Shown here: positions 34,493-48,051 of the stretch, in pieces
Position numbering within the stretch: position 1 is the stretch's first letter
Layout: each line of letters begins with the position of its first letter
Assembly: GCA_003559855.1 (NCBI GenBank)
Contig: PWJZ01000075.1
Coordinates: 1 to 52,700, forward strand
Direction of reading: 5' to 3'
Length of the DNA: 52,700 nucleotides
Source: Bacteroidales bacterium
GTDB taxonomy: Bacteria; Bacteroidota; Bacteroidia; Bacteroidales; UBA7960
Translations under genes and position numbers: made by a program
Notes under the pieces: model-generated
Seen by the model: only the letters and a program-made list of their open reading frames with translations
Database searches by the model: none
Told to the model about the DNA's origin: nothing

Positions 34493-34566
34493 GGTCCGGT
34501 AGTTCAGTTGGTTAGAATGCCTGCCTGTCACGCAGGAGGTCGCGAGTTCGAGTCTCGTCCGGACCG
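34493..34566 (+). tRNA. tRNA-Asp (anticodon GUC)
   Basis: A 74-nt tRNA. Acceptor GGTCCGG pairs with CCGGACC, discriminator G. Anticodon arm CCTGC-CTGTCAC-GCAGG gives GUC. The T arm contains GAGTTCGAGTCTC. Its own promoter and terminator are intact, and the accessory island begins just after it. Confidence 0.95.
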
Positions 34567-34573
34567 CAGGGAT

Positions 34574-34613
34574 AAAACGCAATCATCTTATTTTTAGGTG
34601 ATTGCGTTTTTTA
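34574..34613 (+). terminator. Rho-independent terminator of tRNA-Asp
   Basis: AAAACGCAATCA (34574-34585) pairs with TGATTGCGTTTT (34599-34610), a 12-bp stem with a 13-nt loop and T-rich tail. Confidence 0.85.
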
Positions 34614-34624
34614 TTATGTAATTC

Positions 34625-34646
34625 AGTCCGAATATAGTCCGAATAT
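34625..34646. repeat. Two tandem copies of AGTCCGAATAT
   Basis: An exact 11-bp unit occurs twice in a row (34625-34635 and 34636-34646), 12 nt after the tRNA-Asp terminator. It could be part of an integration core or a binding site. No copy was noticed at the far end of the island. Confidence 0.5.
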
Positions 34647-34856
34647 TTAAAAAATAATGTTTTGGGTATGTTGTTCAAACATAGGATTTATTCAGCAAAA
34701 AATATTAAGTAACTCTTTGAATTGTATTTGCCAAGAACATAATATGGAGAGCTTGCATGACATAATAAATTACAATGCCATTATAGCCTTGTTTGGCGTG
34801 TATCGAGTACATCACGATCAGGCGAGGCGTGTGGGAAAAGTATCTCATAAAATCAA

Positions 34857-35453
34857 CTAATGTTGTTTTTTATCATTGCTATCTTTTGCTTTACCTGCTT
34901 TTTGCTCATTTGGTTTGCCTAAAGGACCTAACGGTGGTAAAGCGTTTTTAGGTTTTTGACCCAGTTCACTATTGTTTGAAACTTGAGAAAGGTTTTGTAG
35001 CACATGGAGTATGTTTTGGGTTTTATTTAATAAATTATGCTTCGTCTCATCAGTTACAGCTCCCAGACCACTTAAACCGATAGCCCAGTTAATCTTATTG
35101 CTTAAATCTCTTAGCTTTTTTTCCAAAACTTTATCCCTTTCAGAAATTATAGCCTTCAATTCCGGCAGAATATCTTCCAATATTTCTTTTTTTATGTCTT
35201 TTTGTTCCTTATTATTACCTGCTTTTCCGCCGAAACTTTCTTTTTTATCGTTTTTTGTGTCTTGAATATTGTTAATACCGGTTTTTCTTTGTCGACAAGC
35301 CAACACCCTGCAACTTTCGCCGCAATACTTCTGAACAAATCGCTTTGTTGGAGTGAAAGAAGCCATGCAATAATGACATTGATACATCTCATCAGCCCTT
35401 TTTGATGGTGAAAAACCATTTTCACCTTGATTTTCTGAACTTAAAGTTGTCAT
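34857..35453 (-). CDS. Zinc-finger and coiled-coil protein of unknown function
   Basis: 198 residues. I do not recognise a named family. Residues 25-55 look like a treble-clef or TRASH-type zinc finger: YQCHYCMASFTPTKRF, then QKYCGESCRVLACRQRK, with four Cys in two pairs. A Lys-rich linker (about 60-90), a helical, coiled-coil-prone segment (about 90-165, KEILEDILPELKAIISERDKVLEKKLRDL) and a Pro/Lys-rich tail follow. The finger suggests binding to nucleic acid. It is the first gene after tRNA-Asp and faces away from the defence genes. Its first 25 codons recur beside the IS element at 46663-46739. Confidence 0.65.
   Translation of the reverse strand: MTTLSSENQGENGFSPSKRADEMYQCHYCMASFTPTKRFVQKYCGESCRVLACRQRKTGINNIQDTKNDKKESFGGKAGNNKEQKDIKKEILEDILPELKAIISERDKVLEKKLRDLSNKINWAIGLSGLGAVTDETKHNLLNKTQNILHVLQNLSQVSNNSELGQKPKNALPPLGPLGKPNEQKAGKAKDSNDKKQH
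35377..35453. repeat. Left copy of a 77-bp direct repeat flanking the island
   Basis: This is the 5' end of the zinc-finger gene. It matches 46663-46739 at 74 of 77 positions by my reading, in the same orientation, 11.3 kb apart. Confidence 0.85.
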
Positions 35454-35519
35454 AATAAGTAAATTTTAGTTGTTATTTATTAGTTTTTTCCGGTTTTTAG
35501 TTGGAAAAAATTGCTGTTT

Positions 35520-35567
35520 GGCGTGAATTGACATGAATGTTCATAAACATCAACGACAATTTACGCC
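35520..35567. promoter_or_regulatory. Nested inverted repeat, possible operator or recombination site
   Basis: The outer 11-bp arms (35520-35530 and 35557-35567) match as an inverted repeat except at one position. An inner 5-bp pair surrounds CATA (35537-35550). It lies between two divergent genes. Function is inferred from position only. Confidence 0.35.
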
Positions 35568-35730
35568 TTTATTTATTTTATGCAAATATACAAATATTTT
35601 TTGTCAAAGCTCGCAAAAATGTTGCCAGACAAGGATTTCAGAAAAGTGACGTGTTAATTATAATTGAGTGAAATTTTAACTCTGGCGAATAACGACAAAC
35701 ATTTTTTAACATTTTTTGTTATAAAACACT

Positions 35731-35738
35731 TAACTTTG
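35731..35738 (+). promoter_or_regulatory. -7 box of the zinc-hook ATPase promoter
   Basis: TAACTTTG matches TAnnTTTG. T-runs lie upstream but no exact TTTG at 19 nt. Confidence 0.35.
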
Positions 35739-35816
35739 ATGAACGTATTAAAACATTGTTATCGGGATTAAATAAAGATTGTTTTCGGTAACCATATTAC
35801 ATTTTACACAAATACT

Positions 35817-38402
35817 ATGACAGAATTAAGATCTAAAATAATTAAATGGTTGCACACTCAACCAAACTGGATGCAGGAAACTGCCAATAGACTGCTTGCA
35901 AAAGGAAATTTAGTTGATCACGATCTAATAGAATTAACTGCTCTTTTGAAAACTGAAGAAGGTCAAAAAAGATCAAATCATAGATCATTCTCAGGGCTTA
36001 CAAGAAATCGAACTAAAGATATGTCTCTCCGCTTGGTTTCAATTGGAGAGATAATAGGAATTGACAAACTTTCACCTAGAAATCCATTAGTATTTGGAAA
36101 CGGCAATCTTGTGGTAATCTATGGACATAATGGATCAGGAAAATCAGGATATGCTAGAATTATCAAAAAGGCAAGTGGCAAACCTAGAGCTAAAAAGTTG
36201 CAATCAAATGTATTCAAAGAAGTGCCTGCAGAACAAAGCTGTAAAATTAGTTATGAGTCTGAGGGTGAATTGAAAACTCCTAAATGGGATGCTAATGGTA
36301 ATCATATAAAGGATCTAGAGTCAGTTGATGTTTTTGATAGAGATGAAGCAGGATTTTATCTTACAGGTGAAACCAATGTTTCATACACCCCACCCGAAGT
36401 TCTACTTTTTGAAAAATTAGCCCAAGTGTGTGATCGAGTAAAAAGTGTACTTCAAGATCAGCAAGACAAGCTTGTATCTAGAAAGCCAAGCATACCTTCA
36501 AAATACAACGGCACTAAAGTTGGTTATAAGTACAATTCTATTACTGCTTCCACTTCTAAGGAAGAATTGAACGGGCTTCTCCTATGGACTGAAGAAAATC
36601 ATAAAAAGCTGGAACAGCTATATGAAAGGCTTAAAGAAGCTGATCCTAACAAATTGGCAGATACTAAGAATAAAAAGAAACAAACGTTAGATCGGCTCAT
36701 CAATAGCATTAAATACGCACAATCACTACTTGATGATAATGCTATCGATAGATTGAAGTTTTTAAAGAAATCGGTTGCTGAAAAAAGAATAACAGCGATC
36801 GAGGGTGCTAAGGTAAAAACTCAAACTGCTAAACTTGAAGGTTTAGGCACAGAAACTTGGCGAGCACTTTGGGAAGCAGCGAGAGAGTATTCAATCAAAG
36901 AGGCATATCCTGAAAAAGTATTTCCGGTGGTTGGAACAAATGCACGTTGTGTTTTGTGTCATCAAGAACTAAGGGAAGATGCATCACAACGATTGCAGGA
37001 TTTTGAAGAGTTTATAAAAGGAAAGTTGGAGTTGGAAGCAAAAAAAGCTGAAGAAGAATTGCGTAATGCTCTGGAAAAACTTCCTTCAGCCCCCGAAATT
37101 GAAACACTAGAATTGCATTGTCAGGATACTGGTATTGATGAGAAACAGAAAAAGAAGATTAAAGATTATTGGAGAACTGCAACAGCAAAAGTTGTTGAAT
37201 TAAAAAATGCAAGTGCCGAAGGTGAATACAAAGGATTGAATTCTCCAAAGTCGTTACTAGAGTCAATGGAACTTTTATCTGGGTCTCTCCAAGAACAAAT
37301 AAATCAACATAAGATAGATGCGAAAGAATTTGACCTGCAAAAAATAGAACAAGATGTTCTTGAAATGGAGACAAAAAAATGGGTTAGCCAACAAAAAGAT
37401 GCTATTGAAGAAGAAATTGAAAGGCTGAAGAAAATTGTTGAATTTGAAACATGGAAAGGGATGACAAACCCTCGTGGCGTATCTTTTCAAGCAGGTAAAA
37501 TTTCAAAAATAGCGATAACTGAAGATTATATTAAAAGATTTAATGATGAGCTTAAAGAACTCGGTGCAAAAAATATATTAGTTAAACTTGTTAAAACAAG
37601 GATAGACCGAGGGCGCATTATGCATCAGATCAAACTCAAAGATGTTGAGCAACAAGGCAGCAATGCAACAGCAGTATTAAGCGATGGTGAACGAAGAGTC
37701 GTGGCACTTGCAGCATTTCTTGCTGATGTGGTTGGTAGACCTGAACCTACACCATTCGTTTTTGATGACCCCATCTCTTCTCTTGATAATGAATTTGAAT
37801 GGGAGGTTGCTATGAGGTTAGCTAAATTAGCGACAGAAAGACAAGTAATTGTTCTCACCCATCGGTTATCGTTTTTTGGAGTACTCGAAGAAGCTGAAAA
37901 AGCAGTTAGGAATGAAATCGGTTCTACTAAAAAGAATTTAGAGCAGAGATGTATAGAAAAATTTAGTGGGTCTGCGGGACATCCAGCAGATCAACAAGCT
38001 TGGGCCCAAAACACAAAGACTGCCAACAACACACTTATTGATAGGTTAAATCAAGCTAAGGAGTTTTGGGATTCAGGTGATTCAAATAATTATAAGATTC
38101 ATGCCCAAGCTATCTGTTCTGACTTCAGAAAATTAATTGAACGAACAGTTGAAGATGACCTTCTATGTGAAATTGTAAAACGACATAGGCGAAGTGTTAG
38201 GACGCAAAATAAATTGAATGGCTTGGTAGCAGTCAAGAGAGAAGATTGTAAATTTATTGATGATTTAATGACAAAATATTCAAAATTTGAACACAGCCAA
38301 TCCGATGAAATGCCCGTTGAAGTGCCTGATGAACCCATTCTGAGGGAAGACTTAGTGACATTAAAAACATGGAGAACGGAATTCAAAAATAGAAAACCAT
38401 GA
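35817..38402 (+). CDS. AAA_13-type zinc-hook ATPase (PrrC/RloC-related), probable defence protein
   Basis: 861 residues. N-terminal helical region (1-90), Walker A G103-HNGSGKS110, a long coiled-coil middle with a zinc-hook motif C378-VLC381 (NARCVLCHQEL), ABC signature LSDGER (about 621-626), Walker B FVFDDP (D650-D651) and VLTHRLSFF. This is the SMC/Rad50-like layout of AAA_13 proteins, which include the anticodon nucleases PrrC and RloC. A C-terminal region of about 170 residues (FRKLIERT, then RHRRSVRT and FEHSQSDE) could be an effector; it has an RxxxE and several His but I cannot assign it to the PrrC/RloC nuclease triad. RloC genes often neighbour type I restriction loci, as here. The start codon follows TAACTTTG by 79 nt. 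Confidence 0.7.
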   Translation: MTELRSKIIKWLHTQPNWMQETANRLLAKGNLVDHDLIELTALLKTEEGQKRSNHRSFSGLTRNRTKDMSLRLVSIGEIIGIDKLSPRNPLVFGNGNLVVIYGHNGSGKSGYARIIKKASGKPRAKKLQSNVFKEVPAEQSCKISYESEGELKTPKWDANGNHIKDLESVDVFDRDEAGFYLTGETNVSYTPPEVLLFEKLAQVCDRVKSVLQDQQDKLVSRKPSIPSKYNGTKVGYKYNSITASTSKEELNGLLLWTEENHKKLEQLYERLKEADPNKLADTKNKKKQTLDRLINSIKYAQSLLDDNAIDRLKFLKKSVAEKRITAIEGAKVKTQTAKLEGLGTETWRALWEAAREYSIKEAYPEKVFPVVGTNARCVLCHQELREDASQRLQDFEEFIKGKLELEAKKAEEELRNALEKLPSAPEIETLELHCQDTGIDEKQKKKIKDYWRTATAKVVELKNASAEGEYKGLNSPKSLLESMELLSGSLQEQINQHKIDAKEFDLQKIEQDVLEMETKKWVSQQKDAIEEEIERLKKIVEFETWKGMTNPRGVSFQAGKISKIAITEDYIKRFNDELKELGAKNILVKLVKTRIDRGRIMHQIKLKDVEQQGSNATAVLSDGERRVVALAAFLADVVGRPEPTPFVFDDPISSLDNEFEWEVAMRLAKLATERQVIVLTHRLSFFGVLEEAEKAVRNEIGSTKKNLEQRCIEKFSGSAGHPADQQAWAQNTKTANNTLIDRLNQAKEFWDSGDSNNYKIHAQAICSDFRKLIERTVEDDLLCEIVKRHRRSVRTQNKLNGLVAVKREDCKFIDDLMTKYSKFEHSQSDEMPVEVPDEPILREDLVTLKTWRTEFKNRKP

Positions 38403-38499
38403 TTAAAAGATTAAGAACACGATGCTTGAAAAGTCAATTATAAAAAAACAGTATTATTCTGATATATAATGTAATTATTAACAATTAAAACACACCGCT

Positions 38500-40353
38500 A
38501 TGCAGTTTCAAAGAATTTCAAAGAAAATAGACGCAGATGATAAAACACTGAAAGAAATTTTACATGAACAAAAATATACTATTGACTATTTTCAAAGAGA
38601 ATATCGTTGGGAACGAAAGCATGTAGAACAACTTATTTACGATTTGGAAGCAGCATTTGCTAATAACTATAATAAGAGCCATGAACGTTCTGATGTGGAA
38701 AATTATAACTCATATTACCTAGGCCCAATTGTGATAAGCGATAAAGAAGGTGCCCTATCCATTATTGACGGACAGCAACGACTTACTTCTTTAACATTAC
38801 TTCTAATATATATTTACAACTTGCAAAAAGGAAGAGAAAAAGCAATACAAGTAGAACCCCTGGTTCGTTCAGAAAAATTTGGCAAACCCTCTTACAATCT
38901 TCAAATTGATGACCGCATTGAATGTTTGGATTCACTTTTTGAAAATGGAGAGTATGATGCTAATGGAAAAGATGAAAGTATCCAAAATCTTGTTGTACGC
39001 TATAACGACATTGATGAACTTTTCCCGGAAGATTATAAGAGCGAACAGATACTACCTTTTTTTGTTGATTGGTTAAAAGAAAAAGTTGTATTCGTGAAAA
39101 TAGTTGCATATTCTGATGAAAATGCCTACACAATTTTCGAAACAATGAATGACAGGGGTTTAAATCTTACCCCTACAGAAATGTTGAAAGGTTATTTGCT
39201 TTCTAAAGTTCCAAATGATCAAAAAATCCTGCTAAATAACCTGTGGAAAAAACACATCGGAAAACTTCATGAGTTTGACAAATTTGAAGACCTTGAATTT
39301 TTTCGTGCATGGTTAAGAGGAAAATATGCAGAAACTATCAGACCTGGGAAAGCAGGTGCTGCAAATGAAGACTTTGAAAAAATTGGTACTCGTTTCCATA
39401 CTTGGGTAAAGGATAAAATGACATCGATCGGTTTAAAAAAATCCGCTGATTATGTTGATTTTATAAAATATAAAATGGACTTTTATGTAAAAATATATTA
39501 TGGCCTTTGGTCAGATGCTAAAAATAATAAATCAAAAGATATGGAACATATCTTTTACTTAGCCTATAATACAATAGCTTCTTCTCTTGAGTATCCATTA
39601 ATGTTAGCTCCAATTACAACAGAAGATGATAACGAGATAGTTAGGAAAAAATTAAATATTACCGCTAGATTCCTTGAAACTTTTTGTGTACTAAGGCGTG
39701 TAAATTATAAAACACTTGCTCAAAGTTCAATTAGATATACAATATATAGTTTAGTAAAAAAAGTTAGGAATAAAAATATTGATGAGTTAATAGCAATTTA
39801 TAAAGATGAATTGCAAAATATGGGCATTTCCTTAAAAGGGGTGAGCAATTTTGGTATACATCAACAAAATAAATATTTCGCAAAATTTTTAATTGCTAGA
39901 ATTACTACTTATATTGATGATAGTTCAGGCCCATCTTTTGAAACATTTATGTCAAATGTAATAAAAAAACCTTTTCAGGTAGAACATATATGGGAGGATA
40001 AATATGAACGATTTAAAGATGAATTTGAACAGCGAGACAATTTTTATTATTACCGTAACAAAATAGGTGGACTTCTTTTACTTCCTAAGGGAACAAATCA
40101 ATCTTTTGGTGATAAACCTTTCATTAAGAAATTACCACATTATTTAAAACAAAATATTCTTGCCCAGTCATTACATGAGGATACTTATAAAAGTAATCCG
40201 AATTTTTTAAATTTCATTCGGGATAAAGGTTTACCTTTTAAATCTTATAAGAAATTCAAAAAAGCAGAATTAGAGGAAAGGTCTGAATTATACCAGAAAA
40301 TATGTGAGCAAATATATTCTTTGGATGGTTTTGATAAAATTGCAAATAAGTAA
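38500..40353 (+). CDS. DUF262/DUF1524 protein (GmrSD-like)
   Basis: 617 residues. The N-terminal DUF262 domain carries I88-IDGQQRLTSL (D90-GQQR94), the ParB-like NTPase signature, after a QREYRWERKHVEQL segment. The C-terminal part has an HNH-like DUF1524 region: KPFQVEHIWED with H496, then a YYYRNKIGGLLLLP strand. GmrSD proteins of this layout are modification-dependent nucleases (type IV) that cut glucosylated or otherwise modified phage DNA. The usual HxxP is HIWE here, so the nuclease motif is imperfect. It lies 97 bp after the zinc-hook ATPase on the same strand. Defence is inferred from family and neighbours. Confidence 0.78.
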   Translation: MQFQRISKKIDADDKTLKEILHEQKYTIDYFQREYRWERKHVEQLIYDLEAAFANNYNKSHERSDVENYNSYYLGPIVISDKEGALSIIDGQQRLTSLTLLLIYIYNLQKGREKAIQVEPLVRSEKFGKPSYNLQIDDRIECLDSLFENGEYDANGKDESIQNLVVRYNDIDELFPEDYKSEQILPFFVDWLKEKVVFVKIVAYSDENAYTIFETMNDRGLNLTPTEMLKGYLLSKVPNDQKILLNNLWKKHIGKLHEFDKFEDLEFFRAWLRGKYAETIRPGKAGAANEDFEKIGTRFHTWVKDKMTSIGLKKSADYVDFIKYKMDFYVKIYYGLWSDAKNNKSKDMEHIFYLAYNTIASSLEYPLMLAPITTEDDNEIVRKKLNITARFLETFCVLRRVNYKTLAQSSIRYTIYSLVKKVRNKNIDELIAIYKDELQNMGISLKGVSNFGIHQQNKYFAKFLIARITTYIDDSSGPSFETFMSNVIKKPFQVEHIWEDKYERFKDEFEQRDNFYYYRNKIGGLLLLPKGTNQSFGDKPFIKKLPHYLKQNILAQSLHEDTYKSNPNFLNFIRDKGLPFKSYKKFKKAELEERSELYQKICEQIYSLDGFDKIANK

Positions 40354-40486
40354 TTGCACCAATACAATTGACAATAACAGCACTGGCACCAACCCACTAT
40401 GGTACATTTGCAAATCGCATATGACAACTTGCAACTTGAATTTGCAAAAGAGCACTTTTTTATGAAATGCGGAGAAAAATATTTTG

Positions 40487-40507
40487 TACTTTTGACAAAT
40501 ATGTCAA
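40487..40507 (+). promoter_or_regulatory. Promoter overlapped by a palindrome: candidate C-protein operator
   Basis: TACTTTTG (40487-40494) fits the Bacteroidota -7 box. The palindrome TTGACA-AATA-TGTCAA (40492-40507) overlaps its 3' end and lies 22 nt before the regulator start at 40529. Controllers of restriction systems bind such GACA/TGTC-type inverted repeats and autoregulate. Confidence 0.5.
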
Positions 40508-40528
40508 GAAGGTTTGTTCTATAACAAA

Positions 40529-40813
40529 ATGGAAAAATTTGGTTTGTATATAAGGACATTGAGAGAAAAAGAAAACTTACCTTTACGTAAGTTGGCTTCA
40601 TCTCTTGATATTGACCAATCTACATTAAGTAAAATAGAACGAGGAGAAAGACAATTTACCTCAGACATGATTCCTAAACTTGCAAATGTATTTTCCTTAG
40701 AATACAAAGATTTGCAAATTATGTTTCTGAAAGAAAAGCTACTTACAGACTTGATTAATCAAGATTTTGCTTTGGAAGCAATTAATGAAATTCAAAAAGA
40801 ATTAAAAAGCTAA
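40529..40813 (+). CDS. Xre-family regulator, C-protein-like
   Basis: 94 residues from ATG 40529 (the TTG 15 nt earlier is less likely). A helix-turn-helix fills residues 4-60: IRTLREKENLPLRKLASSLDIDQSTLSKIERGER, a typical Xre fold. A C-terminal helix (about 65-94) could dimerise. The stop is 3 nt before the nuclease-methyltransferase start at 40817, so it heads the operon. C proteins delay restriction until methylation is established, by binding their own promoter; the palindrome at 40492-40507 is a plausible site. Confidence 0.8.
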   Translation: MEKFGLYIRTLREKENLPLRKLASSLDIDQSTLSKIERGERQFTSDMIPKLANVFSLEYKDLQIMFLKEKLLTDLINQDFALEAINEIQKELKS

Positions 40814-40816
40814 ATC

Positions 40817-43057
40817 ATGGATATTCAGATTGAAAACGGAAAAATATATGCACCTCTCAAGAACAAATGGCTAATGTTAAAGCCAGAGGAGCAAGTACGC
40901 CAAAAGTATATTGCAAGACTTGTAAATAAATACGGTTATTCAATAGAACAAATGGCTCAGGAAGTTCAAGTTAGTAGTTCACAGCGTGGACAGGGGCGTG
41001 CAATGGCTGACATTGTTATATGGAAATCAGCTAAAGATAAAAATGACAATAACAGTCCTGTCATCGTTGTAGAATGCAAAGCCGAAAATATTATCATTCA
41101 TGAGGAAGACTATTTTCAAGGTTTTAATTATGCATCATGGGCAGGTGCAGATTTTTTTGTAACTACTAATTTTAAAGAAACTAAAATATTTAAAGTAATC
41201 AAAGGTAAAATGCCTAAAAAACTCGAAGAAGTGATAAATATACCTGATGCTGATATGATTAACAACAGTAAGAAAGTTAGTGAATTATTAAGGCAAACAA
41301 AGGCTTTTACCAGAGATGAATTTTCTAAACTGCTTTTTAAATGTCATAATATAATTCGTAACAATGATAAACTTTCTCCTGAAGCTGCGTTTGATGAAAT
41401 AAGCAAAATCTTGTTCATAAAAATCCGATACGAACGAGATAATACTGGTGCTCAAATTTTTTCAGAAAAAGAGTTTAAAGAAGCTCGTGCGAGTTATGAA
41501 AAGTTTAGACCAAAAGGTGGTGCTGAATTTTACCAATTCTTATTTCAGCAAACAAAAGAAGATTTTAAAGACGATGATTTATTCGATCCAAATGAAGTTA
41601 TCCGAATAAGGGAAAATAGTTTTGAAGCCATCGTAAAAGAACTTGAAATATATAATCTGTCAACAACTTCTGATGATATAAAAGGTATTGCATTTGAAAA
41701 ATTCCTTGGTAAAACATTCAGAGGTGAGTTGGGTCAGTTTTTCACGCCAAGAACCATTGTTGATTTCATGGTTGAAGTTTTAGACCCGCAAGAAGGTGAG
41801 ATTATTTGCGATCCTTGTTGTGGTAGTGGAGGATTTTTAATTCGTGCATTTGAATATGTCCGGGAAAAAATTGAGAATGAGATACAGCAAGCAAAAGAGA
41901 AAATTAAAAATGAAACATTTACTTCAGAATATGAACGTCTGCCTGAGAAAGAAAAGCAAATAATTGATGAGAAGGTAAATGCACAATTTGCCAAACTTAA
42001 CTATGAATTAGACATCAGCAATCAAAATAGCAGGCTAAGAGTATTAAGTTATGACTGCATTTTTGGCACTGATGCAAACCCAAGAATGAGCCGCACGGCG
42101 AAAATGAACATGATAATGCACGGCGATGGTCACGTTGGAGTTCATCATAACGATGGTTTAATAAATGTAAATGGTGTTTTTGATAACAGGTTTGATATTA
42201 TTCTTACAAATCCACCCTTTGGTTCCCGTGTTGAAAAGAACTGGAAAATTACCGAAGCAGATCAATACACTGATACTGAAAGAATTAAAAAATATCAAAA
42301 ACGTTATGGGCCTTCTTATGATAAAGCTATGGAAGAGATAAATAATAATATTGGCAAACCTCTTTTAAGTTTATATAAAACAGGTTCAATGAGTACCCTA
42401 ACGGAGGTTTTATTTATTGAACGGTGCATCAACTTATTGAAACCGGGAGGCAGAATGGGTATAGTTTTACCAGAAGGTGTTTTAAACAGTTCAAATTTGC
42501 AAAGAGTGCGTGATTTTGTTGAAAGCAAAGCAAAAATTATACTTATCACTTCAATTCCGCAAGATGTGTTTATTGCATCAGGAGCGACAGTTAAGCCAAG
42601 TTTAATATTCTTGAAAAAGTTTACAGAGGATGAAGCTAAAGAATGGAATCGTATTGCTCAGAATGCTAAAAATGAAATATATGCCAAATACGCACCGCAA
42701 ATTAAGCTGTTAGAGGAAAATTTGGCTTTACGAGGAAAAGAAGCTCCCTCTAATTCGGAGAAAAAAGAATTAAGAAAACAACTCAAAGAAATTCAGGAGA
42801 AAATTGAATCAGAACTAGTAGCACAAATTAAAAAGGATTTTGATTACCAAATACCAATTGCCGAAGTTGAAAAAGCCGGTATCAGTACAACAGGAGCTGA
42901 AATTGAAAACGAACTAATTCCTTTGAGCAAAGAATTTACCGAATATCGGAAACAAAACTATTTATGGGAAAATAAATACGATACAATAAAATATGAAGTA
43001 ATTGAAGACGGTAGAATGTTCCGTATTCCAACAGTTGGAGAACCTCAGGAAATATAA
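40817..43057 (+). CDS. Fused PD-(D/E)xK nuclease and N6-adenine methyltransferase (type I-like, BcgI-like)
   Basis: 746 residues. The N-terminal domain (about 1-130) resembles the type I restriction HsdR_N nuclease: D65 in RAMADIVIW and E86-C-K88 in VIVVECKAEN, the PD-(D/E)xK pattern. The methyltransferase part (about 200-620) has D332-PCCGSGGF (AdoMet-binding) and N465-PPF468 (catalytic) plus ELGQFFTPRTIVDFMV. A coiled-coil-rich C-terminal region (about 620-746) should bind the specificity subunit. This is the layout of BcgI-type enzymes: cutting and methylating functions in one chain, with a separate S subunit. There is no helicase/translocase (HsdR) gene in the window. Confidence 0.82.
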   Translation: MDIQIENGKIYAPLKNKWLMLKPEEQVRQKYIARLVNKYGYSIEQMAQEVQVSSSQRGQGRAMADIVIWKSAKDKNDNNSPVIVVECKAENIIIHEEDYFQGFNYASWAGADFFVTTNFKETKIFKVIKGKMPKKLEEVINIPDADMINNSKKVSELLRQTKAFTRDEFSKLLFKCHNIIRNNDKLSPEAAFDEISKILFIKIRYERDNTGAQIFSEKEFKEARASYEKFRPKGGAEFYQFLFQQTKEDFKDDDLFDPNEVIRIRENSFEAIVKELEIYNLSTTSDDIKGIAFEKFLGKTFRGELGQFFTPRTIVDFMVEVLDPQEGEIICDPCCGSGGFLIRAFEYVREKIENEIQQAKEKIKNETFTSEYERLPEKEKQIIDEKVNAQFAKLNYELDISNQNSRLRVLSYDCIFGTDANPRMSRTAKMNMIMHGDGHVGVHHNDGLINVNGVFDNRFDIILTNPPFGSRVEKNWKITEADQYTDTERIKKYQKRYGPSYDKAMEEINNNIGKPLLSLYKTGSMSTLTEVLFIERCINLLKPGGRMGIVLPEGVLNSSNLQRVRDFVESKAKIILITSIPQDVFIASGATVKPSLIFLKKFTEDEAKEWNRIAQNAKNEIYAKYAPQIKLLEENLALRGKEAPSNSEKKELRKQLKEIQEKIESELVAQIKKDFDYQIPIAEVEKAGISTTGAEIENELIPLSKEFTEYRKQNYLWENKYDTIKYEVIEDGRMFRIPTVGEPQEI

Positions 43058-43064
43058 GGTTAAA

Positions 43065-44411
43065 ATGAAAAAGTTAGAATTTTTACATATTATTCCTTTT
43101 TCACAACTTATTATGTGGGATGTCAAGAGACATTTATTCAATGAAGTTCAGTCGAATTTTACAATGATTCCATTGTCTGCACTGATTGAAGAGAATAATA
43201 ACAAAGTTAAACTAAACGAATTTCCAGACAAAGAATTTGGTATATTGGGTATTAATAATGTAGATGGTTTATTTGATGCATATATAGAAAAAGGAGCAAA
43301 AATTAATCAGCCATACAAAAAAATGGAAGTAAATGAATTAGCATATAATCCATATAGGATTAACGTTGGTTCAATTGGAATGAAAACTTCCATTCATAAA
43401 AATGATTATATTAGTCCAGCCTATGTTGTATTTAGATGCAATGAAAAATTAAGCACGGAATTTTTATATAACTTATTTAAAACAGAAACTTTTGATAAAA
43501 TTATAAATGATAATACAACGGGCTCTGTTAGGCAAAATTTAAAATTTGACACATTAAAAAACATTAAAATCCCTTTACCGACATTAGCAGAACAAAACAG
43601 AATTGTTGAAGCTTACAATGAAAAAATAAAACAAGCTGAGGAACTTGAGCAGAAAGCAAATAAATTGGAAGAAGAGATTGAGGAATATCTTTTTAAGCAA
43701 TTAGGTTTGCAAAAAGCAACAATAAAACCATTTAAAAAAGGTGAAATCAATCTGTTTCCTTTTAGTAGCACTTTTGGCAGATGGGATATTCATAAAGATT
43801 CTTCAAATTTATTATTATCTCTTAAAAATGCAAAATATCCAATAAAAGCTCTTTCAGAAGTATTTAATTTTAAAAGTAGAAGTTGGAATAAAAAAGACCA
43901 TCAAGGTGAGTATTTTAATTATGTTGAGTTAGGAGCAGTTGACCCTTTAAAAGGAATACTAGAATGCAAAAATTTATTAGTTAAAAAAGCTCCAAGTAGA
44001 GCAACTCAAATAATTAAAATAGGCGATTTAATAATTGGAACCACCCGCCCTTATCTTAAAAGATTTGCAATTGTAAATGAACAGTTTGATGGAAATATTG
44101 CTTCATCTGGTTTTCAAATAATTGCACCTTCTGATAGTTATAACCTTGAATTTCTTTTAGAATATTTAAAATCTGATTATGGGGTTAAGCAATTTGAATT
44201 ATATATGACAGGTGCTTTATATCCAGCAATTACAAGTAAGGATTTAAGAAAAGTTTTAATTCCTTTTCCACCTGTTGCTATTCAAAATGAAATATCAGAT
44301 ACAATAAAAAGGATTAAAAAGGATATTAAGGAGTTATTAAATAGCATTGTTTATTTAAAGCATGCCGCAATAAATGATTTTGAAAACGAAATATTTAAGT
44401 CATGCAATTAA
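43065..44411 (+). CDS. Type I-like specificity subunit (HsdS)
   Basis: 448 residues from ATG 43065, 7 nt after the methyltransferase stop (an in-frame ATG at 43002 lies inside that gene and is less likely). Two target-recognition domains are separated by a conserved helical spacer: LPTLAEQNRIVEAYNEKIKQ with a coiled coil (about 175-215), and a second set (IPFPPVAIQNEISDTIKRI, about 400-420) ends the protein. It chooses the DNA site for both cleavage and methylation by the fused subunit. Its last 10 nt overlap the PtuA-like gene (ATG 44402), implying translational coupling. Confidence 0.85.
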   Translation: MKKLEFLHIIPFSQLIMWDVKRHLFNEVQSNFTMIPLSALIEENNNKVKLNEFPDKEFGILGINNVDGLFDAYIEKGAKINQPYKKMEVNELAYNPYRINVGSIGMKTSIHKNDYISPAYVVFRCNEKLSTEFLYNLFKTETFDKIINDNTTGSVRQNLKFDTLKNIKIPLPTLAEQNRIVEAYNEKIKQAEELEQKANKLEEEIEEYLFKQLGLQKATIKPFKKGEINLFPFSSTFGRWDIHKDSSNLLLSLKNAKYPIKALSEVFNFKSRSWNKKDHQGEYFNYVELGAVDPLKGILECKNLLVKKAPSRATQIIKIGDLIIGTTRPYLKRFAIVNEQFDGNIASSGFQIIAPSDSYNLEFLLEYLKSDYGVKQFELYMTGALYPAITSKDLRKVLIPFPPVAIQNEISDTIKRIKKDIKELLNSIVYLKHAAINDFENEIFKSCN

Positions 44412-45931
44412 AGAGATTATATATCAAAGACTATAAAATCTTAAAGGATTTCACAATTGAATTTCCTTACGATTTTAAAAAGTATATTTCGGTGTTTATA
44501 GGTGCTAATGGTTCAGGTAAATCAACAATACTTGAAGCAATAGCAGAAATATTTAGCAGTTTATTTCTTTCAAAGAAGTTAAAATTTGATTTTGAAATTG
44601 AATACTCAATTTTGGCTGATGATATTAAATCTAAATTCTCATTCACCAATCCTGAACTTAAACATATTCCTGTTAAAATTACCGGAAAATCCGGGAATTT
44701 CGCAAAAACTGAAATAAGTTTCGATTTAATCCCATCGGAACAGCTTGACCATGAGGATACTCATATAAAATTAAGTTTTGCTCAACGTGAATTCAGGAAT
44801 TTAATGCCGGATAGTATAATAATATATTATGCCGGTTTATCTGAAATTATGGAAGAAATATGTAAACCACATGAAGATAAACTTTCAAATGAATATCGTA
44901 AGGGTAATACAAATATTGACAGGGATTTCTTTTATTATAAACCTGAACACTTCGGAATTATCCTATTAAGCCTTTTATCATGCGAGTTTGGTGATATTCC
45001 TGGTTTTTTAAGAACCAAGGCTCAAATTGAAAGAGTGCATAATATAAAAATAATATTGAAAGAACCCTACTGGGCAGAATCTGGGAGTGTAATAGATGAC
45101 TTTTGGGGAGCTTCAGGAAATGTAAGAAGATTTTTAGATTTCATTTGTCATAATTTCTCAAAAGGAGATAAGTATGAGTTTTTGGATTATAACGTGATAA
45201 AGAAAAATGTCACAGTGGTTGAGGTCAGTGATGAAAAACTTCAAATAAATATTAAAGACCAGAACACACTTTTCGTAATAAAGGAATTTTTAGGAGAAGA
45301 ACGATTATTTTTCGAGGTATTAAGTACGATGCATTATGATGACCTCATTGATAACATTAATATTACCTTGATTAAAAATATTAATAACCGACCAACACCA
45401 TTTAATATTTTAAGTGAAGGTGAACAACAAGCCATATCCATTAGAGGATTGACAGAATTATTATCTGGTAAGAATACACTGTTTCTTTTTGACGAACCTG
45501 ATACCTATATACATCCAAGTTGGCAACGGCAATTAATCAATGAAATAGAAAAAATTATTGAGGAATCTTTTGAGGCAGAAAACTCATATCTAATTGCAAC
45601 TCATTCCCCTCAGTTACTTAGCAATGCACAAAACGAATTGAATTTTGTGAAGATTATTGAAAATGGATCATTAGTTGATAAAACGCCCAAATTTTATGGC
45701 CGTGAAATTAGTTCTATTCTTTATAATTTGATGGGGGTTGAAGAACGAAACGAGACAATAAAAAAGGATTTAAATAATTTATTTATTTTAATTGAAGATG
45801 AGGAAATAACAGAAGCAGAAAATGAATTAAATCGATTAATGGAAATTTTAGGTGAATATGATCCTGATATAAAAAAAGATGAAATCCAATTAAAATATTT
45901 AAAAGAAGATGAAGCAAATAACCAAGAATAA
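44402..45931 (+). CDS. PtuA-like AAA ATPase (Septu component)
   Basis: 509 residues. Walker A G34-ANGSGKST42 follows the MQLKRLYIKDYKILKDFTIEF opening. The middle is lineage-specific. ISIRGLTELLS and FDEP (D364-E365, Walker B) precede ATHSPQL (H401, H-loop). This ABC/OLD-like ATPase followed by an HNH gene of the TIGR02646 type defines Septu (PtuAB), an anti-phage system in which PtuA forms an oligomer holding PtuB. The HNH start lies 23 nt inside this gene, so the two are translated together. No reverse transcriptase or msr/msd sequence is visible, so it is not a retron-associated copy. Confidence 0.75.
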   Translation: MQLKRLYIKDYKILKDFTIEFPYDFKKYISVFIGANGSGKSTILEAIAEIFSSLFLSKKLKFDFEIEYSILADDIKSKFSFTNPELKHIPVKITGKSGNFAKTEISFDLIPSEQLDHEDTHIKLSFAQREFRNLMPDSIIIYYAGLSEIMEEICKPHEDKLSNEYRKGNTNIDRDFFYYKPEHFGIILLSLLSCEFGDIPGFLRTKAQIERVHNIKIILKEPYWAESGSVIDDFWGASGNVRRFLDFICHNFSKGDKYEFLDYNVIKKNVTVVEVSDEKLQINIKDQNTLFVIKEFLGEERLFFEVLSTMHYDDLIDNINITLIKNINNRPTPFNILSEGEQQAISIRGLTELLSGKNTLFLFDEPDTYIHPSWQRQLINEIEKIIEESFEAENSYLIATHSPQLLSNAQNELNFVKIIENGSLVDKTPKFYGREISSILYNLMGVEERNETIKKDLNNLFILIEDEEITEAENELNRLMEILGEYDPDIKKDEIQLKYLKEDEANNQE

Positions 45932-46583
45932 TGAGCCACGCGCTTTAATTCAGCATAGGGCGCAGAAAGATAACTACGACAATCTTAACAAAAATGAGTT
46001 ACGTGATTCTCTGATTGAAGAGCAAGGTCATATTTGTTGTTATTGCATGTGCCGCATACCTCATAAATTAAAGCAACATGAAATTGATAATAATTATCCC
46101 GATAGTAAAATTGAACATGTTAAATGCCAGTCGAAGAATAGAAACTTAGAATTAAATTATCATAATTTGTTATTAGCCTGTAATGGAAGGCATGGTTATC
46201 CCAGACAAATGCAAACTTGCGATACATTTAAAGGAGAAAATGATTTATCATTCAATCCGGCAGATAATGCAAAGAACATCGAAGATTGTATAAAATATTC
46301 TGCCAATGGTGAAATATACTCCGATGATGAAACAATTAATAGAGAACTTAACGAAGTTTTGAACCTTAACACCAAAGACTTAAAGGATATTAGGGAAGTT
46401 TTCTATAAAGGTATTCAGGAACGAATAATAAGAAAAGGAAAAAGGCGACAAGGAAAAGATATACAAAAAAGGACTTATGAATCTGAAAAGCAGGAATTGT
46501 TGATGCTGAAAAAAGGTAAATATATTCCATATTGCATGATTGGCATCTACCTAATAAACAAAAAGAAAAACAAATTAGCTTAA
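45909..46583 (+). CDS. PtuB-like HNH nuclease (Septu component)
   Basis: 224 residues, starting 23 nt inside the PtuA-like gene. It fits the TIGR02646 family of HNH proteins: QGHICCYCMCRI (C43, C44, C46), E69-H70 as IEHVKC, N86 in NYHNLLLACNG, and C91/C104 closing the zinc-binding fold (TCDTFKG). A basic C-terminal region (about 160-224, RKGKRRQGKDIQKR) could contact nucleic acid. In Septu it is the nuclease that PtuA holds inactive until infection. It is the last gene of the Xre-RM-S-PtuA-PtuB operon; I see no terminator after it. Confidence 0.78.
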   Translation: MKQITKNNEPRALIQHRAQKDNYDNLNKNELRDSLIEEQGHICCYCMCRIPHKLKQHEIDNNYPDSKIEHVKCQSKNRNLELNYHNLLLACNGRHGYPRQMQTCDTFKGENDLSFNPADNAKNIEDCIKYSANGEIYSDDETINRELNEVLNLNTKDLKDIREVFYKGIQERIIRKGKRRQGKDIQKRTYESEKQELLMLKKGKYIPYCMIGIYLINKKKNKLA

Positions 46584-46662
46584 ATGAATTCGTGGGCAAA
46601 AGACAAGCCTAATGTAAAATTCATCACCGGATTATCATCCAATGCATCCCTTAATAAGAGGT

Positions 46663-46740: not shown

Positions 46741-48051
46741 ATTAGTGTCCGATTAATTCCAGTTGATTTTCAACTGATTACCATATAGTTCTTTGACATC
46801 TTTGTAATTCTGATTTGTAAGTAGCTCTTTTATAGGTGTTTTGTCAAGTAGAGATATGCTCAAAATTTGCAATATTTCGTAGGTAGAACGATCAATTTTA
46901 AGTTTGTTACGTACCAGTGCAACCAGACAATAGGCAATAATTGCTGAATAGATCTGTATTTTGACTGCATTCAGACTCGTGCCCCAAAATGATTTGATCT
47001 TAAGATGTTGTTTTATCCATTTTAAAAACAGCTCCACCTTCAATCTATATTTGTAAAGTTTAGCAATTTCTTCTGAAGTCAGATCAAAGTTATTTGATAA
47101 AAACTCAAGTTCATTATTTGTTTCTTCATCGAAAAATTTGATGTACCGGAGCTTTTCAGGATATTTTTTAGAAACATAAAATCCTTTCAGCTTCCCGATC
47201 TGATCTAATAAAACACCGTTCTCCTTACAAACTTTATTTGAGTACATTCTGCGAAATTTGATATTATCTTTTGCTCTGGCAACGAAAAAGGCTGAGTTTT
47301 TATGTATTTTGAACAACCTATTATAATCAATATAAGCCCGATCAAAGATATAATATCCACCTGGTTCGTAATGCAAAAAATCCATCACATTTACATCATG
47401 CACCGATGCTGAAGATATATGGATGAAAGAGGGGATTGATGTTTTGATGACATACAAGATATGCAATTTGATTCCTCCTTTTGTTTTACGAAATTCAGCC
47501 CACCAGAAAACACTCAAACATAGATCAATGGTGGTAGAATCGAAAGCATAAACATTTCCATCAATGTTAAGCTGAAAGTCATGATCTGCTATTGATGATT
47601 GCTTGGCCATATCAATGAGATAGTATGCGAAATCTTCAAATACCCTACAATCTCTTTTTTCATTGGAATTAGCAAAGTTTGATCTGGAAGTTCCTTTGCC
47701 AAAACCAAGATGATATACTTGGGTTTGTGTGGCTCAATACTAATCATCAAATCTAGCAAACTATCTCTGCCGGCAAGCTGTCCAAATACCATACAGAGTA
47801 ATTGATTCCAGCATGAGAAATGTCTAACATACTTATTTGCATTGTATTTGGTGACCATGCCGTCAAAAATTCATTTGAGGAGAAACTCGGTAAGTTGAGA
47901 GAAAACAAATTTGCCTTGATTCATGATTATTAGCTTTGTGCAAAGCTAATAACCAATATTTCAATTCAAATCGACACGCAACTATAAGCTCTACAAGTCA
48001 GATATAGCAAAGATTTCAAAGAACGTTATTTAATATTTATCGAACACTAAT
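46741..48051 (-). mobile_element. Decayed IS4-family insertion sequence
   Basis: About 1.31 kb bounded by 17-bp terminal repeats: ATTAGTGTCCGATTAAT (46741-46757) and, inverted at 48035-48051, ATTAGTGTTCGATAAAT (15 of 17 match). It carries one transposase reading frame with two inactivating changes. No clear target-site duplication beyond AT is visible. Confidence 0.8.
46753..47924 (-). pseudogene. IS4-family transposase, inactivated by a nonsense codon and a frameshift
   Basis: Read from ATG 47924: MNQGKFVFSQLTEFLLK then TGA (expected CGA, Arg, as in related PKRVFD sequences), then IFDGMVTKYNANKYVRHFSCWNQLLCMVFGQ. A one-base deletion near 47712-47718 (AAGTATATCAT in place of AAGTATTATCAT, which would encode KYYHLGFG) shifts the frame. 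The DDE domain continues to 46753: DSTTIDLCLSVFWWAEFRK, YIFDRAYIDY and KVELFLKWIKQHLKIKSFWGTS. These are typical of IS4/DDE_Tnp_1 transposases with an N-terminal DUF4372-like part. The two lesions make it non-functional. Confidence 0.85.

What the first reader, a model, noticed from the sequence alone, without database searches (positions are those of the whole stretch)
44402..46583. Septu (PtuAB) translationally coupled to a restriction system
The S gene overlaps PtuA by 10 nt and PtuA overlaps PtuB by 23 nt. Combining an N6 methyltransferase RM and Septu in one operon suggests joint action, for example methylation marking self DNA or RM cleavage products activating PtuAB. This is the best candidate for an undescribed composite system.
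Basis: partly seen in the sequence, partly recalled or inferred. Interest (0 to 1): 0.7.

Follow-up and report, generated by a model that had tools for sequence, protein, structure and literature searches.

The report
Septu-like nuclease pair in restriction operon
A bacterial DNA-restriction operon ends in a Septu-like ATPase and nuclease pair, and in the genomes examined this kind of ATPase was seen only behind restriction genes, probably as a second, backup weapon against viruses.

Summary
In detail: S/PtuA overlap 10 nt, PtuA/PtuB 23 nt. The order recurs: of 67 related M loci with a complete S and enough downstream DNA, 47 have an OLD/PtuA-type ABC ATPase next, against 5 of 40 other HsdS loci. 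The window's "PtuA" is not an ordinary Septu PtuA. In a 104-row tree it lies in a branch of 62 ATPases, each encoded behind HsdS; four other HsdS-linked ATPases fall outside. Joining window-type ATPases with free Septu PtuA is rejected (AU p = 0.003). Two effector types occur behind this M family, a separate HNH PtuB (as here) or a C-terminal TOPRIM, with at least 12 changes on the M tree. Searches started from the ATPase agree: S is directly upstream in 11 of 12 decidable strong genome hits and 4 of 4 plasmid hits. The branch also occurs beside HsdR-containing systems, and the window's M keeps a nuclease motif, so the pair looks like an added backup or guard effector (compare PrrC), not a replacement nuclease. 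That mechanism is inferred. Coupling of OLD-type ATPases with nucleases in RM-like systems is in print, so this is a new variant of a known kind.

The parts
40514..40813 (+). Xre/HTH_3 regulator (TTG 40514; ATG at 40529 is an alternative start)
   Evidence: HTH_3 44 bits; Xre-like ORF just upstream of M in 25 of 82 related loci with over 400 nt upstream
40817..43057 (+). M: N-terminal HSDR_N_2 nuclease domain (D65, E86, K88 invariant in the 11-row alignment) fused to N6-adenine methyltransferase (motifs DPCCGSGG and NPPF)
   Evidence: ExK in 82 of 83 relatives by pattern and reading
43065..44411 (+). S: two-domain specificity subunit (longest ORF from TTG 43002; ATG 43065 lies after the M stop codon)
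44402..45931 (+). PtuA-like ABC ATPase of the HsdS-linked branch; Walker A 34-41, signature SEG 338-340, Walker B DEPD 364-367, H401
   Evidence: model pLDDT 80
45909..46583 (+). PtuB-like HNH nuclease (TIGR02646 type); H70 and N86 invariant in 17 aligned sequences

Best explanation
The operon is a type IIB-like RM system (nuclease-methylase M plus S) that carries an ATPase-nuclease cassette as a second effector. Proposed working: the PtuA-like ATPase assembles with PtuB and is kept silent while the M-S complex works normally. When a phage blocks or diverts M-S, for example with an antirestriction protein, the ATPase releases or activates the HNH nuclease, which cuts host or phage nucleic acid (tRNA or DNA) and stops the infection. 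Shown here: operon structure, recurrence, an ATPase branch seen only behind HsdS, exchange of HNH and TOPRIM cassettes within one M family, and presence also beside HsdR-containing systems. Inferred: physical association, silencing, trigger and target.
For: Recurrence against control: 47 of 67 against 5 of 40, Fisher p = 6.6e-9. Branch: 62 ATPases, all S-linked, in one group, SH-aLRT 96; AU tests reject grouping by HNH partner. Searches from the ATPase: S directly upstream in 11 of 12 decidable strong hits and in 4 of 4 plasmid records. It is an added effector: an HsdR-like gene stands with M, S and a branch member in L163, L227, L228, L234, L237 and L239, and with S (M not recognised) in L232 and L233; M keeps ExK in 82 of 83. 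Cassette exchange: at least 12 changes on the M tree. Precedents, passages or one section read: PrrC latent with the Hsd complex (PMC3506569); RM 'guardian' systems PrrC and PARIS (PMC12707154). The model resembles retron I-A PtuA best; PDB titles there name PtuA:PtuB:RT complexes and a retron-displaced free PtuAB complex.
Against: No physical or functional data. The place behind HsdS is used by other OLD ATPases too: 4 of 26 OLD loci sampled outside this search have S directly upstream yet lie outside the branch or were left out of the tree, and 5 of 40 control loci have such an ATPase. S shows no covariation with ATPase type (33 of 53 against 28.2 shuffled, p = 0.15). No S-ATPase fusion was found. 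14 of 67 loci have no such ATPase within three genes of S. PtuB sequences of RM-linked and free systems interleave. L145 is an HsdS-linked PtuAB whose ATPase is an ordinary PtuA. One strong hit, G221, has no S in the 391 nt before it, though its N-terminal part is missing.
Confidence: 0.42

Rival explanations
1. PtuAB is the attack arm of the RM: M-S reads unmethylated foreign sites and loads the ATPase, which drives the HNH or TOPRIM nuclease onto that DNA; methylation by M-S marks self.
For: This M family has no evident motor subunit beside it (only weak HsdR-like hits in L092 and L024). ABC motifs are intact. The genes overlap tightly.
Against: The same ATPase branch sits beside HsdR-like genes, which would already supply motor and nuclease, and M keeps its own nuclease motif. 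14 of 67 related loci lack the ATPase near S.
Confidence: 0.22
2. Independent modules: the 3' end of hsdS is an insertion hotspot, and the pair is an autonomous Septu-like system carried there for shared expression.
For: Other genes also occur after S in this family, such as Fic and Schlafen proteins. OLD ATPases outside the branch also sit behind S (4 of 26; 5 of 40 control loci). Published defence genes lie between hsdS and hsdR (PMC12255303, passages). Cassettes are exchanged.
Against: A hotspot alone does not explain a branch of 62 ATPases with no free member in the tree, or the 11 of 12 and 4 of 4 S-linked hits from ATPase-first searches.
Confidence: 0.23
3. RM cleavage products (ends or nicks) activate PtuAB.
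For: PMC11555353 reports, citing others, that an E. coli Septu acts on nicked DNA (passage).
Against: The same paper and PMC13096335 (passages) report tRNA-Tyr cleavage by PtuAB of a retron and of another Septu; nothing seen in the sequence points to end sensing.
Confidence: 0.1

Closest known systems
Septu (PtuA + PtuB)
   Same: ABC ATPase followed by overlapping HNH gene; PADLOC PtuA/PtuB are best models
   Different: ATPase branch separate from free PtuA; under NCBIfam PtuA/PtuB cut-offs; joined to M and S
Retron type I-A (RT + PtuA + PtuB)
   Same: PtuAB attached to another module; best fold match of the model
   Different: No reverse transcriptase; M and S in its place
TIGR04435 restriction system-associated AAA family ATPase
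   Same: Top NCBIfam model for the window ATPase and for 6 of 7 other branch members scanned (L163, L012, L059, L016, L240, L242; in L024 it is second)
   Different: 102 bits against a cut-off of 300 for the window; all scanned are under the cut-off
OLD-ABC backup effectors in BREX and RM-like systems (PMC12839542)
   Same: OLD-type ATPase with TOPRIM or HNH nuclease inside a methylase system
   Different: There described around BREX; here a type IIB-like M-S core with exchange of cassettes
PrrC in the EcoprrI type I locus
   Same: ABC-NTPase effector encoded in an RM operon
   Different: PrrC is one protein with an anticodon nuclease; here ATPase plus HNH partner
MADS (MAD2/MAD3/MAD5)
   Same: M and S hit MAD2 and MAD5 models; ATPase hits mad3 weakly
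   Different: All under cut-off; other MAD genes not seen among the listed matches of the eight proteins scanned

Membership tests
Septu | ABC ATPase motifs (Walker A, signature, Walker B, H-loop) | tested here: met
Septu | HNH PtuB encoded directly downstream | tested here: met
Septu | ATPase groups with PtuA of free-standing Septu | tested here: not met
   AU p = 0.0028 with 39 rows held together; p = 0.0088 for all 45 HNH-paired ATPases; groups named after a first tree was seen
Septu | NCBIfam PtuA/PtuB equivalog cut-offs | tested here: not met
   90 of 500 and 94 of 150 bits
Septu | Anti-phage activity of the pair alone | not testable with these tools
   needs a phage assay
Retron I-A | Reverse transcriptase upstream of PtuA | tested here: not met
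   gene upstream is S; no RT family among eight proteins scanned
Type IIB RM (BcgI, BsaXI) | Nuclease and N6-methylase in one chain with S, no motor | tested here: met
   RM.BsaXI among PDB hits
Type IIB RM (BcgI, BsaXI) | Double cleavage on both sides of the site | not testable with these tools
   needs purified enzyme
Type I RM | HsdR translocase subunit | tested here: not met
   none among the eight proteins scanned
TIGR04435 | Score over 300 bits | tested here: not met
   101.8 bits
MADS | MAD2, MAD3, MAD5 cut-offs | tested here: not met
   296 of 720, 29 of 420, 82 of 400 bits
PrrC-type RM guard | Effector silenced by the RM complex and released on antirestriction | not testable with these tools
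   location in the RM operon only

The most novel reading that the evidence does not exclude
A distinct branch of OLD/PtuA-type ABC ATPases is dedicated to HsdS-containing RM systems in at least Bacteroidota, Campylobacterota and Pseudomonadota and acts as a common sensor of RM status. Its nuclease, HNH or TOPRIM, is exchanged as a cassette behind the same M family, so restriction enzymes carry a replaceable second weapon.
Probability: 0.37. Interest if true: 0.72.

Novelty: new variant of a known kind. Interest (0 to 1): 0.55.

Why it matters
PADLOC's best models for this locus point to RM genes and Septu genes, that is two systems. If the pair is one system, its trigger may be the state of the RM complex, which would make the idea of immunity coupled to suicide (Makarova 2012, PMC3506569) testable with an exchangeable effector. 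Residues that mark the ATPase branch against free PtuA (E45, F51, Y68, F304, E339, P366; the last is shared with OLD ATPases) give a way to tell the two apart in databases.

Tried and rejected
A model of M from 11 sequences had pLDDT 57 and was not used. Covariation of S with ATPase type was sought as a sign of contact and not found. S-ATPase fusions: none. Rfam was not run. A first ATPase tree lost free PtuA rows to a too narrow P-loop pattern (seen); it was rebuilt with them and with plasmid and type I rows. For that tree 27 rows were dropped: near copies over 80% identity and five long-branched OLD rows. On checking, 4 of the 26 OLD rows that I had labelled free (L173, L174, L188, L194) proved to have S directly upstream; L194 was not in the 104-row tree; the other three are counted here as S-linked rows outside the branch, and the tree was not rebuilt. 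A TOPRIM profile tried found nothing and was replaced by sequence motifs; L060 carries only a weak motif, and L036 is labelled HNH by its ATPase because its contig ends there. The PtuB tree is poorly resolved and interleaves RM-linked and free PtuB. A recent capture of a free Septu PtuA was considered and rejected by the AU tests; the groups were named after the first tree had been seen. After this check I lowered the guard reading from 0.45 to 0.42 and the novel case from 0.40 to 0.37, and raised the hotspot rival from 0.20 to 0.23, because of the four OLD rows and G221.

Limits: the 83 M loci are near relatives of the window M (80 kept of 213 found, plus four genome loci, with one duplicate removed and one short contig left out), not independent draws. 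'Next gene' means the next same-strand ORF of at least 100 aa from my own ORF picker. The 40 control HsdS loci were higher-scoring places, leaving out contig-edge places, most second places in one genome, and G226, whose S belongs to the M family studied. Searches with A1 scored only four candidates a genome. The genome samples are one phylum. Tree method 'quick'. HsdR-like calls rest on phmmer with two queries, checked by Pfam only in L163 and L145.
Full report
What is there. On the + strand of the window lie Xre (40514/40529-40813), M (40817-43057), S (43065-44411), a PtuA-like ATPase (44402-45931) and a PtuB-like nuclease (45909-46583), with overlaps of 10 and 23 nt at the last two junctions. 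M carries HSDR_N_2 in front of N6_Mtase, S has two Methylase_S stretches, and PADLOC gives PtuA and PtuB as best models for the last two. None of the eight proteins scanned is an HsdR motor or a reverse transcriptase. RM.BsaXI, a type IIB enzyme, is among the solved proteins that M matches.

Recurrence. M relatives were gathered from 395 phylum genomes (6 with a match, the own genome included) and from GTDB contigs (213 found, best 80 kept). 83 loci went into the count. In 67 of them S is complete with at least 1.5 kb beyond it; the next same-strand ORF of at least 100 aa is an OLD/PtuA-type ABC ATPase in 47, such a gene lies within three in 6, and 14 have none that near (in L073 it is the fourth). 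Sixteen loci could not be judged. Among 40 other HsdS loci of the same phylum the next gene was such an ATPase in 5 and PtuB in none; Fisher p = 6.6e-9. Related loci are not independent, so the p value is only a guide. The full Xre-M-S-PtuA-PtuB order is seen in L010, L017, L086 and L090, and in L089 with one extra ORF.

Two cassettes. 52 loci have a full-length ATPase behind S. In 18 it is of the PtuA type (16 followed by the PtuB cluster, L017 by a PtuB found with PADLOC, L036 cut by its contig end). In 34 the ATPase carries a C-terminal TOPRIM-like motif; of ten ATPases scanned with Pfam, three matched OLD-like TOPRIM, one of them just under its cut-off. Some loci carry two ATPases in tandem, for example L024, L033, L064 and L092. 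On the tree of 84 M proteins the two types need at least 12 changes: L047 (HNH) and L056 (TOPRIM) are sisters, and L017 and L019 (HNH) are nested with L059 (TOPRIM). Five pairs with different cassettes were compared as DNA: identity over M is 74-90%; the main block stops within 75 nt of the S start in four pairs and inside M in L061/L085; short blocks reappear inside S in three. So S and cassette change while M stays. S sequence does not predict cassette type.

A branch of its own. In a tree of 96 ATPase domains, and again in a wider one of 104, the window ATPase lies in one group, SH-aLRT 96 in the wider tree, of 62 rows that all come from behind HsdS: 49 from this M family (window included), and 13 from type I-like loci and plasmids. 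None of the 21 free or retron PtuA rows and none of the 20 OLD rows lies inside. Four HsdS-linked ATPases lie outside: L145, a type I HsdM-HsdS-PtuAB-HsdR locus with an ordinary PtuA, and three OLD rows (L173, L174, L188) whose S I found only on checking. Of 26 OLD loci sampled, 4 have S directly upstream; of 40 PtuB loci, only L145 and L163 have S near, by a profile that finds 35 of 36 control S proteins. So the branch is HsdS-only in this sample, but not every ATPase behind HsdS belongs to it. Holding the window-type HNH ATPases together with free and retron PtuA lowers the log-likelihood by 76 (AU p = 0.0028); holding all HNH-paired ATPases together lowers it by 74 (p = 0.0088). The groups were chosen after the first tree was seen. 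Residues that mark the branch against free PtuA include E45 (all 62; 9% of free PtuA), F51, Y68, F304, E339, and P366 of Walker B (all 62; 5% of free PtuA; but all OLD rows). PtuB is different: RM-linked and free PtuB interleave in a weakly resolved tree, which suggests that the ATPase is the dedicated part and the HNH part more freely shared.

Searches that did not start from M. A profile of 18 RM-linked ATPases found 33 places in 29 of 395 genomes. Fourteen are strong (E <= 1e-39). Eleven have S directly upstream. Two, in G342, are cut inside the gene by contig ends. One, G221, lacks the N-terminal part and shows no S in the 391 nt before it. Three of the 11 were in the profile and one, G187, was already known from the M search, so seven are new: G316, G174, G178, G312, G346, G063, G015. 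Of 19 weak places, 5 are S-linked and 14 are not. In 72,556 plasmid records 4 match at E <= 1e-20 and all 4 have an annotated S directly upstream, in Vibrio, Pantoea and two Pseudoalteromonas; in 3 of the 4 the next protein matches PtuB or TIGR02646, under cut-off. In 50,697 phage records there is none at E <= 1e-10.

How it may work. Two facts speak for an added effector. Branch members stand beside HsdR-like genes (with M and S in L163, L227, L228, L234, L237, L239; with S but no recognised M in L232, L233). And in the M family the ExK nuclease motif is kept in 82 of 83 (L024 reads GCK; three others missed my pattern but show ECK on reading). So the cassette does not simply replace a lost nuclease. 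The best-studied precedent is PrrC, latent with the Hsd complex and released when restriction is blocked (PMC3506569, passages; PMC12707154, passages and section 72). PARIS, an OLD-type ATPase with a TOPRIM nuclease, senses an antirestriction protein (PMC12707154 section 72; PMC12839542 section 35). Retron I-A shows PtuAB tied to another module; its PtuA structures are the best fold matches of the window model (pLDDT 80; TM about 0.4 and rmsd over 11, so the domain arrangement of the single-chain model is not reliable). PtuAB targets in print are tRNA-Tyr (PMC11555353 and PMC13096335, passages) and nicked DNA (cited in PMC11555353). I favour a guard or backup effector under RM control, at 0.42. 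Silencing, trigger and target are inference. Against it stand the wider use of the site behind HsdS by other OLD ATPases, the lack of S covariation, and the lack of any functional data.

What is known. [quoted passage not shown] I take reference 52, from memory, to be Krishnan 2020, which is not held. TIGR04435 is named restriction system-associated AAA ATPase. PMC12255303 (passages) has DarTG2, and in four genomes a putative RNA-binding protein with an AAA-like ATPase, between hsdS and hsdR. PMC8565338 (passages) notes Hma found often with Septu. MADS, recalled, has similar M, S and ATPase parts; its paper is not held. My paper searches listed no title or abstract on this M-S-PtuA-PtuB operon or on this ATPase branch; several lists were capped, I opened seven papers, and most subscription papers are outside the library. 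Hence: new variant of a known kind.

Noticed in passing
window 35817-40353: Two more defence-type genes directly upstream on the same strand: a PDC-S06 AAA_13 ATPase (1009 bits, PADLOC) with a CVLC motif in its middle, and a GmrSD-type protein.
   Followed up: no
window 34493-46600: The defence genes start near a tRNA-Asp gene (34493-34567), and 38-46 kb is AT-rich (GC 0.29-0.32 against 0.35-0.43 in the first 34 kb).
   Followed up: no
window 46753-47858: An IS4-family transposase ORF (46753-47610) on the - strand lies right behind PtuB; a second ORF (47589-47858, not scanned) overlaps its start, so the element may be split.
   Followed up: no
L141, L144, L147, L148, L149, L159: Another recurrent composite: a ~1195-aa protein (SNF2-type helicase with NOV_C in L141), PtuA, PtuB, then a 941-977-aa protein (DUF1156 and MethyltransfD12 in L141); possibly the published Hma with Septu.
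   Followed up: partly
L132, L135, L136, L137, L138: PtuAB preceded by a 589-648-aa protein (no Pfam match in L138), with an Eco57I methylase and a Schlafen protein before it and GmrSD behind it in L138; an unnamed recurrent set.
   Followed up: partly
L049, L052, L058, L063, L070: A 129-130-aa ORF without Pfam or PADLOC match (scanned in L052) follows the TOPRIM ATPase; in four of the five a GmrSD-like gene comes next.
   Followed up: no
L154, L157: 742-743-aa proteins with a PtuB-like stretch stand beside a second PtuB-like gene.
   Followed up: no
L016, L060: DUF5655 appears either fused to the RM-linked ATPase (L060) or in the next gene together with a weak NucS_C match (L016), a possible third cassette type.
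   Followed up: no
L323, L324, L336, L341: OLD-type ATPases outside the branch that also lie directly behind HsdS (L173, L174, L188, L194), so the 3' end of hsdS is a wider site for such genes.
   Followed up: partly
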